A DNA stretch of 64,000 nucleotides from Candidatus Tepidiaquacella proteinivora (GTDB lineage: Bacteria > Bacteroidota > Ignavibacteria > Tepidaquicellales > Tepidaquicellaceae). Both the position numbers and the translations under genes were made by a program. The stretch lies in assembly GCA_013348845.1 (NCBI GenBank), contig CP054675.1:1063501-1127500 (forward strand), given 5' to 3'. Shown one piece after another: positions 50,911 to 55,399 of the stretch. Numbering within the stretch: position 1 is the stretch's first letter; the number at the start of each line of letters is the position of its first letter. A model generated the notes under the pieces. The model worked only from the letters and a program-made list of their open reading frames with translations, was not told where the DNA came from and ran no database searches.

Positions 50911-52119
50911 TTATTCTAATATCTTTGTCACAACACCAGCACCTACTGTTTTACCACCTTCTCTGATAGCAAATTTTAAGCCTTCTTCCATAGCGATTTC
51001 TGATATTAAATCAACTTGTAATCTTTCAACATTATCACCAGGCATAACCATATCAACACCTTCCGGTAAAGTGATAACACCAGTAACATCAGTGGTTCTG
51101 AAATAAAATTGAGGCCTATAATTTGTAGAGAATGGGGTATGTCTTCCACCTTCCTCTTTAGATAACACATAAACCTGACATTCAAATTTCTTATGTGGAG
51201 TAATTGAACCAGGTTTAGCGAGTACCATTCCTCTTTCAATTTCCTTCTTATCTATACCTCTTAATAACAATCCGCAGTTAAATCCTGCAATTGCTTCATC
51301 AAGAGTTTTGTTAAACATTTCAGTACCTGTAACAACAGTTTTCTTGTGCTGCCCAAGTCCGATAAGTTCTACTTCATCACCTACTCTTACTTTTCCTCTT
51401 TCAATCCTTCCGGTTGCAACAGTTCCCCTACCGGTTATAGAGAATACGTCCTCAACAGGCATAAGGAAATTCTTATCAACATCCCTTTGAGGTTGTGGGA
51501 TATAATTATCAACAGCATCTAACAGTTCCCAGATGGATTTAAATCTTTCATCATCTGCTGATACGTTTTCATCCAGACCAGCCTCCATAGCTTTAAGTGC
51601 GCTCCCTCTAATAACAGGAACTTCATCACCAGGGAATCCGTATTTTGTAAGAAGTTCCCTGACTTCCATTTCTACTAAATCAAGCAATTCAGGATCAGCG
51701 GCATCTACTTTATTAAGATAAACAATAATTGCAGGTACACCTACCTGTCTTGCAAGAACAATGTGCTCTCTGGTTTGAGGCATAGGACCGTCAGTAGCAG
51801 CAACAACAAGAATAGAGCCATCCATTTGAGCTGCACCAGTAATCATGTTTTTAATGTAGTCTGCGTGCCCGGGGCAATCAACGTGTGCATAGTGTCTTTT
51901 ATCAGTTTCATATTCAACGTGTGCGGTAGCAATTGTAATACCTCTTGCTTTTTCTTCTGGTGCCTTATCAATTTCCTCAAATTTCTTTACTTTTGCTTTA
52001 CCTTTACGAGCGAGAGCCATTGTTATGGCAGCGGTCAACGTGGTTTTACCATGGTCGACATGCCCGATGGTACCAATATTAACGTGAGGTTTTGTCACGT
52101 CATATTTCTCTTTTGCCAT
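50911..52119 (-). CDS. tuf: Elongation factor Tu
   Basis: This 402-residue GTPase delivers aminoacyl-tRNA to the ribosome. The G1 loop [10 protein letters not shown], switch [15 protein letters not shown], the G3 motif DCPGHADYI and the G4 motif NKVDAAD are present, followed by domains II and III. A strong AAGGAG site precedes the ATG, unlike the neighbouring ribosomal protein genes. It lies 54 bases downstream of a tRNA-Ile gene and belongs to the fused str/S10 cluster. Another tuf copy may exist elsewhere. Confidence 0.98.
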
Positions 52120-52173: not shown

Positions 52174-52247
52174 TGGGTCAGGGAGGAATTGAACCTCCCA
52201 CCTCGTGCTTATAAGGCACGCGCTCTAACCATCTGAGCTACTGACCC
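52174..52247 (-). tRNA. tRNA-Ile with anticodon UAU
   Basis: The minus strand folds as a complete cloverleaf of 74 nt. The acceptor arm is GGGTCAG/CTGACCC, the D arm GCTC/GAGC, the anticodon arm CGTGC/GCACG with loop CTTATAA, then a 5-base variable loop and the T arm GGAGG/CCTCC with loop TTCAATT. The discriminator is A, and CCA is not encoded. The loop gives anticodon UAU, which reads AUA. It lies between fusA and tuf. Confidence 0.93.
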
Positions 52248-52404: not shown

Positions 52405-54486
52405 TTAATAAGATTTTCCTTTCTCTACAACATAATCTGAAATACCACTCGGCAGTTCATCGTAATGTGAAAACTGCATTGTGTATATTGCTCTTCCCTG
52501 ACTCATAGACCTCAGAGAAGTTGCATAACCGAACATCTGAGATAAAGGAACCAGAGCTTTTACGACTTGTGCATCACTTCTCTGCTCAACACCTTCAATT
52601 TTTCCATGTCTTGCGGTTAAATCTCCCATAACATCTCCTAAATATTCTTCAGGAGTTACAACTTCTACAGCCATTATTGGTTCGAGAATAACCGGGTCTG
52701 CTTTTCTCACTGCTTCTTTAAAGGCTATAGAAGCTGCGACTTTAAAAGCAAGTTCAGATGAATCGACTTCATGATAAGAACCATCTAATAAAGTAACCTT
52801 AACATCTTCAATAGGATATCCAGCAACTACTCCGCTTCTCATCGCTTCTTCAACTCCTTTTGCAACAGCAGGGGTATACTCTTTTGGAATTACTCCACCT
52901 TTAATAGCATTTTCAAATATGAAACCTTTTCCTTTTTCATTTGGTTCCACTTCCAATACAACATGACCATACTGACCTCTTCCACCAGTTTGCTTAACAA
53001 ATTTACCTTCTGCCGATGCACTTTTTCTGATTGTTTCTTTGTATGCAACCTGTGGTTTACCGATATTAGCTTCTACTTTAAATTCTCTCTTCAATCTATC
53101 AATAATAATCTCAAGATGAAGTTCTCCCATACCAGAAATCAGAGTTTGGGATGTTTCTTCATTAGTGGATACTCTAAAAGTCGGGTCTTCATCAGAAAGT
53201 TTTGAAAGTGATTCTGCCAATCTTTCTTCATCTGCTTTTGTCTTGGGTTCAATTGCTACCTGAATTACAGGTTCAGGAAATGTGATTTTTTCTAAAATTA
53301 TTGGGTCACTTTCATCACAAAGTGTATCACCTGTTTTAGTCCCGCGTAGACCAACAACAGCAGCAATATCACCACAATATACTTCCTTGACTTCAGTTCT
53401 ACTATTTGCATGCATTTGCAATAATCTTCCAATTCTTTCTTTTCTTCCTGTAGTTGAATTGAATACAGAATCACCAGACTTAATAAATCCTGAATAAACT
53501 CTTAAAAAAGTTAACTTACCGACATAAGGGTCAGTCATAATTTTAAATGCTAATGCAGTAAACTTTTCATCATCTGAAACTTTCCTGATAACTTTATCAT
53601 TCTTATGGATATGATGTCCGAAAATATCTCCTATATCAACTGGAGAAGGTAAAAGTTCAACAATTTTATCGAGTAAATTCTGTACACCTTTATTTCTAAA
53701 AGATGAGCCACAAAGAACAGGTATAATTTTAACTTCTATTGTTGCTTTTCTTAAAGCACTTATAATTTCTTCTTGAGAAATTTCCTTTCCATCTAAAAAT
53801 TTCACCAGGAGAGTATCATCAATATCTGAAACCGCTTCAAGCAACTTTTGTCTATATTCACTTGCTTGTTGTTTAAAAGAATTTGGTATTTCGATATCCT
53901 GATATGTAGCGCCAAGTGTTTCTTCATGAAATATTCGTGCTTTCATAGCTATTAAATCAATAATACCTGCAAACATATCTCCATTACCTATTGGTAAATG
54001 AATAGGTACAGCATTAGCATTCAAGCGATCTTTCATCATTTGAATTGTATTAAAAAAATCTGCACCAACCCTATCCATTTTATTAACAAAAGCAATTCTC
54101 GGAACTCTATATTTATCAGCTTGACGCCAAACTGTTTCAGATTGTGGTTCAACACCACCGACAGCACAAAATAAAGCAACTGCACCATCAAGTACCCTTA
54201 GAGAACGCTCAACCTCAGCTGTAAAATCAACATGCCCTGGTGTATCTATAATATTAATCCTATGATTATTCCAATAACAGGTAGTAGCAGCAGAAGTAAT
54301 TGTTATACCTCTTTCTTTTTCCTGTTCCATCCAATCCATAGTTGCAGCGCCTTCATCTACTTCTCCAATCCTATGAACCTTACCAGTATAATACAATATA
54401 CGCTCAGTGGTAGTTGTTTTACCAGCATCTATATGCGCCATAATTCCAATATTTCTCGTCTTCTCTATGGGTACTTCTCTTGGCAT
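52405..54486 (-). CDS. fusA: Elongation factor G
   Basis: This 693-residue translocation GTPase is full length. The G1 loop [14 protein letters not shown], the switch segment [12 protein letters not shown], the G3 motif DTPGHVDF and the G4 motif NKMDRVG are clear. Domains II to V follow, with the domain IV tip near GRGQYGHVV and the C-terminal [17 protein letters not shown]. It lies 15 bases after rpsG in the str order. No Shine-Dalgarno sequence is visible before the ATG. Confidence 0.98.
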
Positions 54487-54501: not shown

Positions 54502-54969
54502 TTACCATTTAAAATGGGCAAATGCTTTATTTGCTTCTGCCATTCTATGAACATCTTCTTTCTTCTTAACAGAAGCTCCATCACCAACTGAGGCAGCCAT
54601 TAACTCATTAGCAAGTTTAAGAGACATAGATTTCTCATTTCTTGCTCTGGCAAAATTAATTATCCATTTTATTGCAAGAGCAATTTTCCTGTCAGGTCTA
54701 ATCTCAGTAGGAATCTGATAGTTAGACCCACCGACTCGCCTTGATCTAACTTCAATTGAAGGCATTACATTATTTATAGCTTTATTAAAAATCTCTAAGG
54801 GATCACTTTTCGTTTTTTCAGCAATAATATCAAAAGTTTTATAAACAATTTTTTCTGCGAGTCTTTTTTTACCCTTTTTCATCACATTATTAATGAATCT
54901 TCCAACGAGAATATCGTTGTATTTGTAATCAGGAATTCTTTCTCTTTTTTCTGCTCTCTTCCTTCTCAT
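54502..54969 (-). CDS. rpsG: 30S ribosomal protein S7
   Basis: This 155-residue protein has the S7 pattern RFINNVMKKGKKRLAEKIVY, the NVMPSIEVRSRRVGGSNYQ loop and a C-terminal HRMAEANKAFAHFKW. S7 nucleates assembly of the 30S head and in E. coli represses the str operon. It is 25 bases after rpsL and 15 before fusA. Confidence 0.97.
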   Translation of the reverse strand: MRRKRAEKRERIPDYKYNDILVGRFINNVMKKGKKRLAEKIVYKTFDIIAEKTKSDPLEIFNKAINNVMPSIEVRSRRVGGSNYQIPTEIRPDRKIALAIKWIINFARARNEKSMSLKLANELMAASVGDGASVKKKEDVHRMAEANKAFAHFKW

Positions 54970-54994: not shown

Positions 54995-55399
54995 CTATTT
55001 ATTTTCTTCTTTTTGTTGAATTAATGTTTGTTTTGCTCTTTTAGTACCATATTTAGACCGTCCCTTTCTTCTATCTTTAACACCTTCAGAATCTAATGCG
55101 CCTCTAATTATATGATAACGAACACCGGGTAAATCTTTTACCCTTCCACCTCTAATCAACACTATTGAGTGTTCTTGTAAGTTATGCCCTTCACCAGGGA
55201 TATAAGATGTAACTTCTATACCATTAGTTAATCTTACCCTTGCAACTTTTCTTAAAGCTGAATTAGGTTTTTTGGGGGTTGTAGTATAAACCCTTGTACA
55301 AACACCTCTTTTTTGCGGGCATGAATCCATCGCAGGTGCTTTACTTTTGTACTTCTTAATTTGTCTTCCTTTACGAATTAATTGGTTAATAGTTGGCAA
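54995..55399 (-). CDS. rpsL: 30S ribosomal protein S12, TTG start
   Basis: This 134-residue protein begins [20 protein letters not shown] after the initiator, in line with S12 elsewhere. The codon at the expected start is TTG (55397-55399). An in-frame TAA lies three codons upstream, so no ATG start is possible. The decoding-centre loops [13 protein letters not shown] and [14 protein letters not shown] are standard, with the lysines linked to streptomycin sensitivity. It is the first gene of the str cluster. A 20-base dyad lies about 30 bases upstream. Confidence 0.96.

What the first reader, a model, noticed from the sequence alone, without database searches (positions are those of the whole stretch)
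52174..52247. tRNA-Ile with a true UAU anticodon
Seen: a perfect cloverleaf with anticodon loop CTTATAA. Known: most bacteria read AUA with a CAU tRNA whose C34 is changed to lysidine by TilS; a UAU anticodon is rare and has been described in a few lineages such as Mycoplasma mobile, where TilS is absent. AUA is very common in the genes of this AT-rich window. Inferred: AUA decoding may bypass lysidine here, or both tRNAs coexist.
Basis: partly seen in the sequence, partly recalled or inferred. Interest (0 to 1): 0.6.

Follow-up and report, generated by a model that had tools for sequence, protein, structure and literature searches.

The report
Isoleucine tRNA that bypasses lysidine
A whole group of ordinary bacteria with normal-sized genomes appears to have given up a supposedly near-universal tRNA-editing enzyme and instead reads the AUA codon with a tRNA whose anticodon matches it directly, together with a change in the enzyme that loads that tRNA.

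Summary
[quoted passage not shown] It is the normal AUA reader of its lineage, not an oddity. In the window's own 2.40-Mb one-contig genome I found 42 tRNAs, none of them tRNA-Ile2(CAU), and no TilS. Across 294 genomes of the class, UAU and TilS exclude each other: in the window's order UAU is in 40 of 44 genomes and TilS in 0 of 44; outside it UAU is in 0 of 250 and TilS in 244 of 250. The fusA-tRNA-tuf position is conserved, and AUA is 40% of Ile codons. The anticodon arm resembles tRNA-Ile1(GAU), not Ile2(CAU). IleRS is the eukaryote-like type 2; of 1019 compared columns the only radical fixed difference from 12 TilS-bearing relatives is W739R in the anticodon-binding domain. The Trp is also absent in one other TilS-less UAU bacterium and in eukaryotic IleRS. 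TilS-free UAU decoding is known (Mycoplasma mobile); the order-wide loss and the IleRS2 signature look new.

The parts
52174..52247 (-). tRNA-Ile(UAU), the AUA-reading tRNA
   Evidence: ARAGORN, RF00005 72.7 bits, conserved in 40 of 44 order genomes
52209..52215 (-). anticodon loop CUUAUAA; U34 at 52213, A35 at 52212, U36 at 52211
   Evidence: read from sequence; ARAGORN anticodon position 35
50911..52119 (-). tuf (EF-Tu), downstream neighbour
   Evidence: ORF and translation; found next to the tRNA in 28 of 30 loci
52405..54486 (-). fusA (EF-G), upstream neighbour
   Evidence: ORF and translation; found next to the tRNA in 30 of 30 loci
54502..54969 (-). rpsG (S7), same operon-like run
   Evidence: ORF and translation; gene name from recall of the sequence
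54995..55399 (-). rpsL (S12), same operon-like run
   Evidence: ORF and translation; gene name from recall of the sequence

Best explanation
In this order of Ignavibacteria the AUA codon is read directly by a tRNA-Ile with a genomically encoded UAU anticodon. The lysidine route (TilS plus tRNA-Ile2(CAU)) has been lost. Steps shown by sequence: the tRNA and its conservation, its fixed place between fusA and tuf, absence of detectable TilS and of tRNA-Ile2(CAU), heavy AUA use. Steps inferred: the UAU tRNA arose from a tRNA-Ile1(GAU)-like gene by a change of base 34 (G to U); the eukaryote-like (type 2) IleRS accepts U34 because a Trp of its anticodon-binding domain, invariant in the TilS-bearing relatives compared, became Arg (own residue 739); AUG is kept for Met by competition with elongator tRNA-Met and by an unknown property of U34 or of the ribosome.
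For: TilS N-domain model TIGR02432 over cut-off in 0 of 44 order genomes and 244 of 250 other class genomes; own genome none at all; PF01171 over cut-off 0 of 44, with the two weak own hits being GuaA and MnmA. UAU pattern in 40 of 44 order genomes, 0 of 250 others. All 38 CAU hits (37 genomes) of the order pattern search are of elongator-Met type, while a like pattern finds Ile2(CAU)-type tRNAs in 24 of 32 outgroup genomes, so the pattern can see them. fusA next to the tRNA in 30 of 30 loci, tuf also in 28 of 30; the other 2 are cut by contig ends on that side. AUA 39.6% of Ile codons, 46 of 164 in eight translation genes. Anticodon arm GCCTNATAAGC shared with Ile1(GAU), not GACTCATAATC of Ile2. 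IleRS: 253 columns invariant in 12 outgroups; only two columns are fixed differently in 17 order members, V503I and W739R; residue 739 lies in Pfam Anticodon_1, 688-835.
Against: No expression, charging or modification data. Four of 44 order genomes gave no UAU hit (G193, G209, G110, G232; completeness 93, 87, 94, 64) even with one mismatch. The own assembly lacks a detectable rRNA operon (that search also missed 5 of 14 controls), and the tRNA scan scored 150 of 177 candidates, so a hidden tRNA cannot be fully excluded; the pattern also missed Ile2(CAU) in 8 of 32 outgroups. W739R is one event within one clade; contact of this residue with base 34 was not tested. Mean identity of the UAU tRNA to Ile1 (0.776) and Ile2 (0.728) of outgroups is not far apart.
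Confidence: 0.85

Rival explanations
1. Both systems coexist: a divergent TilS and a tRNA-Ile2(CAU) still read AUA, and the UAU tRNA is redundant, as reported for Lactobacillus plantarum (title of a cited paper seen in PMC9976931).
For: Coexistence is common elsewhere: 15 of 50 UAU-bearing genomes have TilS over the cut-off.
Against: TilS over cut-off in 0 of 44 order genomes by two models with 14 of 14 controls ringing; no CAU tRNA other than Met types in 44 genomes nor among 42 own tRNAs.
Confidence: 0.05
2. The UAU tRNA is a pseudogene or a passenger and AUA is read by tRNA-Ile1 through some other wobble.
For: No expression data; most order members have an unusual base 48 (G in 7 of 8 distinct sequences).
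Against: Compensatory changes in two stem pairs with every pair intact in 8 of 8 distinct sequences, conserved position in a translation operon, and 38.8 AUA per 1000 codons that must be read. G34 cannot normally read A (textbook wobble rules).
Confidence: 0.04
3. The tRNA and TilS facts hold, but W739R is unrelated to U34; type 2 IleRS accepts U34 anyway, as the eukaryotic enzymes do, and the substitution is lineage drift.
For: One fixed change in one clade; the Falkowbacteria and eukaryotic enzymes have K directly after the RF/RL motif, and alignment there is ambiguous (a deleted Trp or W to K).
Against: W is kept in 12 of 12 class outgroups, in Acetoanaerobium, Rhodococcus, 1ile and 8c8w, and absent in all three UAU-reading groups seen; of 253 outgroup-invariant columns only 5 lost the residue throughout the order.
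Confidence: 0.4

Closest known systems
Mycoplasma mobile tRNA-Ile(UAU) decoding without TilS (Taniguchi et al. 2013; paper not held; described in PMC4013482, passage seen; IleRS details recalled)
   Same: UAU tRNA, no TilS; recalled: IleRS adapted by an Arg in place of a Trp
   Different: M. mobile is a mycoplasma with a type 1 IleRS (Arg865 = E. coli W905, recalled); here an order with 2.0-4.6 Mb genomes, a type 2 IleRS and a different Trp, in the Anticodon_1 domain
UAU plus CAU coexistence in lactic acid bacteria (Tomikawa 2018, Uesugi 2022; only titles seen in PMC9976931)
   Same: UAU anticodon tRNA-Ile in bacteria
   Different: there redundant with CAU (title); here CAU-Ile and TilS not found
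Patescibacteria, Bifidobacterium, Similichlamydia genomes with UAU and no TilS over cut-off
   Same: same combination (13 of 13 Patescibacteria chosen, 2 of 2 Bifidobacterium, 1 of 1 Similichlamydia)
   Different: tRNA sequences differ in the anticodon stem and look like separate origins (6 such sequences read)
Eukaryotic cytosolic tRNA-Ile(UAU) with type 2-like IleRS
   Same: UAU read by an IleRS of the same type lacking the Trp (species names of PDB entries recalled)
   Different: eukaryotes modify the UAU anticodon (PMC8007984 passage; pseudouridine recalled); modification here unknown

Membership tests
TilS-independent tRNA-Ile(UAU) AUA decoding (M. mobile kind) | genomic tRNA-Ile with UAU anticodon | tested here: met
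TilS-independent tRNA-Ile(UAU) AUA decoding (M. mobile kind) | no tilS gene | tested here: met
TilS-independent tRNA-Ile(UAU) AUA decoding (M. mobile kind) | no tRNA-Ile2(CAU) | tested here: met
   with outgroup positive control (24 of 32); own rRNA operon not seen
TilS-independent tRNA-Ile(UAU) AUA decoding (M. mobile kind) | U34 unmodified | not testable with these tools
   MnmG and MnmA are present, so U34 modification is possible
TilS-independent tRNA-Ile(UAU) AUA decoding (M. mobile kind) | type 1 IleRS with Arg at the site of E. coli W905 in the C-terminal zinc domain (recalled) | tested here: not met
   own IleRS is type 2-like (8c8w 921 bits versus 1ffy 379 bits) and its C-terminus matches DUF5915, with no zinc-finger family listed; another Trp-to-Arg change is present
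TilS-independent tRNA-Ile(UAU) AUA decoding (M. mobile kind) | ribosome prevents reading of AUG by the UAU tRNA (recalled) | not testable with these tools
   needs ribosome binding assays
Canonical tRNA-Ile2(CAU)/TilS lysidine system | TilS present | tested here: not met
Canonical tRNA-Ile2(CAU)/TilS lysidine system | C34 in the AUA-reading tRNA | tested here: not met

The most novel reading that the evidence does not exclude
In type 2 IleRS one residue after the RRRF motif of the anticodon-binding domain is a switch for the wobble base: Trp where AUA is read through lysidine, absent or basic where AUA is read through U34. Losing this Trp made TilS dispensable, so lineages with type 2 IleRS have repeatedly and stably dropped lysidine, including a whole order of ordinary bacteria, and eukaryotic cytosolic decoding of AUA uses the same solution.
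Probability: 0.4. Interest if true: 0.75.

Novelty: new variant of a known kind. Interest (0 to 1): 0.6.

Why it matters
TilS is described as conserved in bacteria (PMC12514573, title and passages). An order of bacteria with 2.0-4.6 Mb genomes without it shows that loss is not tied to genome reduction. The clean partition (UAU or TilS, never both, in 294 genomes) plus a single radical IleRS change gives a concrete, testable path by which a decoding rule is rewired, and a possible second, independent Trp-to-Arg solution beside the one in M. mobile (recalled). How AUG stays Met with a U34 tRNA becomes testable in this clade.

Tried and rejected
Divergent TilS: rejected; the weak own hits are GMP synthase and MnmA. 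Assembly error at base 34: rejected. Origin by C34U of tRNA-Ile2(CAU): disfavoured by the anticodon arm, not excluded. tRNA-Ile(GAU) in the own genome: not found (up to 3 mismatches), nor a 16S gene; 11 of 44 order genomes show Ile(GAU), and in the four such loci read in full it sits beside tRNA-Ala(UGC), so I take the own absence as an unassembled or withheld rRNA operon. IleRS in other UAU lineages: sought in 400 kb of G338, 380 kb of G339, 255.5 kb of G342, 54.6 kb of G331 and 779 kb of G312 (Bifidobacterium) and not found; found only in G343. The first-pass IleRS extraction picked a wrong frame for at least one locus and was redone. IleRS alignment: of the 30 genomes, G011 (a split gene, under the cut-off) was dropped, leaving 17 order and 12 outgroup sequences. 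UAU loci near synthetase genes proved to be valS-like, not ileS (by sequence, names from recall). Literature: searches listed no paper on Ignavibacteria lacking TilS; subscription papers are not held.

Full report
Observation. The window holds one tRNA gene, tRNA-Ile with anticodon UAU on the minus strand at 52174-52247. The anticodon loop is CUUAUAA with U34 at 52213. It lies between fusA (52405-54486) and tuf (50911-52119) in a run rpsL-rpsG-fusA-tRNA-tuf-rpsJ-rplC-rplD-rplW (gene names from recall of the translations).

Own genome. The window is part of a single 2,403,876-base contig, completeness 98.66. RF00005 gave 42 tRNAs (150 of 177 first-look candidates scored). Anticodons read with ARAGORN include one Ile(UAU), and two CAU tRNAs: an initiator with the C1xA72 and GGG/CCC features of fMet, and an elongator-Met-like one (features recalled). 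There is no Ile(GAU) and no Ala(UGC) among them, and no 16S match (a search that also missed 5 of 14 controls). In relatives 11 of 44 genomes show Ile(GAU); in the four of these loci that were read in full it is next to Ala(UGC). The own absence is therefore most likely an assembly or masking gap of the rRNA operon. TilS (TIGR02432) gave no match at E<=0.001 while all 14 control genomes rang.

Distribution. In 294 genomes of the class TIGR02432 is over its cut-off in 244, none of them among the 44 of the window's order (23 of the 44 have only weak matches, E 3.4e-6 or worse; 21 have none; G224 is counted as one of four match-less genomes that the output did not list by name). Six of the 250 other genomes also lack an over-cut-off match. 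PF01171, the wider PP-loop family, is over cut-off in 0 of 44 order genomes and in 14 of 14 controls. The UAU pattern is in 40 of 44 order genomes and 0 of 250 others. A pattern for any NAU anticodon finds, in the order, UAU, GAU and only Met-type CAU (38 hits in 37 genomes); a similar pattern finds Ile2(CAU)-type tRNAs (C32, GACTCATAA) in 24 of 32 outgroup genomes and UAU in none of the 32. The four order genomes without a UAU hit (G193, G209, G110, G232) stay without one at one mismatch; G193 shows no Met hit either, so its assembly may simply lack the genes.

Who they are. NCBI places Ignavibacteria in Ignavibacteriota. That the order is Ignavibacteriales is my inference.

The tRNA. Thirty loci with UAU, some of them the same gene fetched twice, give 8 distinct sequences; all cloverleaf pairs are canonical in all 8, and pairs 4-69 and 29-41 show two-sided compensatory change. 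Base 48 is G in 7 of 8, giving an unusual G15-G48 pair, and C in one (sequences; numbering mine). fusA lies upstream in 30 of 30 loci and tuf downstream in 28 of 30; the two exceptions (L070, L076) are cut by contig ends on that side. The anticodon arm matches tRNA-Ile1(GAU) of the same and other orders at positions 30-32 and 39-40, not Ile2(CAU); mean identity is 0.776 to outgroup Ile1, 0.742 to same-order Ile1, 0.728 to Ile2, 0.630 to Met. An origin from Ile1 is favoured, weakly.

Need. In 43 window ORFs AUA is 38.8 per 1000 codons and 731 of 1847 Ile codons; in eight translation genes 46 of 164. For comparison PMC12514573 (passages seen) gives 4.9 per 1000 for E. coli and 39 for Borrelia burgdorferi as the upper end of its set.

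IleRS. All 30 genomes searched have an IleRS match, 29 over the cut-off. The own enzyme (P0001, 1047 aa) is type 2-like: 921 bits to 8c8w and 750 bits to a cytoplasmic IleRS, against 379 bits to 1ffy (which entries are type 1 or 2 is recalled; the two types are described in the abstracts of PMC10485003 and PMC4861432 as listed). In an alignment of 17 order and 12 outgroup enzymes (1019 gap-free columns, 253 invariant in the outgroup) only two columns are fixed to different residues: V503I and W739R. Residue 739 is in Anticodon_1, 688-835. W is also found in Acetoanaerobium and Rhodococcus, 1ile and 8c8w; that these organisms use TilS is assumed, not tested. In a TilS-less UAU Falkowbacteria genome the motif reads RRSRDRFK, and in the eukaryotic entries 8wnd, 9w01, 9wqs and 7d5c NRRRLKG. 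The automatic alignment leaves a gap at 739 for Falkowbacteria, so 'Trp lost, next residue basic' is the safe wording, not 'W replaced by K'. The Trp is thus missing in all three UAU-reading groups seen and present in all the other bacteria seen; these are few independent events.

Mechanism. Shown: gene content, conservation, codon use, IleRS signature. Inferred: direct U34-A3 pairing at AUA; charging by an IleRS adapted at 739; retention of AUG for Met. MnmG and MnmA are present, so modification of U34 is possible; if MnmEG acted on this tRNA, AUG misreading would be expected to rise (general knowledge), so either the tRNA escapes it or the ribosome discriminates, as reported for M. mobile (recalled).

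How widespread. Of these 115 I checked 50 (archaeal ones left out, the rest chosen for variety): 15 of 50 have TilS over cut-off, 35 do not, among them 6 order members, 13 of 13 Patescibacteria, 2 of 2 Bifidobacterium and Similichlamydia; one Bacilli genome falls just under the cut-off at 83.7 bits. Completeness is not known for these.

What is known. tRNADB-CE reported bacterial TAT-anticodon tRNAs in 19 species including M. mobile, and that some bacteria lack tilS (PMC4013482, passage seen). A 2021 review states that UAU is lost in prokaryotes (PMC8007984, passages seen). My searches listed no report of the loss in Ignavibacteria; subscription papers are not covered. So the kind is known; the order-wide replacement in large genomes with a type 2 IleRS signature is, as far as seen, a new variant.

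Noticed in passing
L215 (G000:C1:533708-536233) and L206-L225: In the own genome the IleRS second zinc motif CWRC reads CWRH (FCWRHKTP), and the CWRC motif is missing in the other own-family members printed, while the sister family keeps CWRC.
   Followed up: no
window 52174-52247 and L056-L085: G48 instead of C48 in 7 of 8 distinct UAU tRNA sequences gives an unusual G15-G48 Levitt pair.
   Followed up: partly
G000 whole contig: No 16S rRNA match and no tRNA-Ile(GAU)/Ala(UGC) in a one-contig genome, pointing to a missing or withheld rRNA operon.
   Followed up: partly
L161, L184, L136, L173, L088, L093, L176, L153: Several patescibacterial UAU tRNAs lie within a few kb of a valS-like gene.
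   Followed up: no
L138, L145: Some UAU tRNAs in TilS-bearing genomes sit in long tRNA arrays (tRNA numbers 22 and 8 of their loci), suggesting mobile elements rather than the housekeeping set.
   Followed up: no
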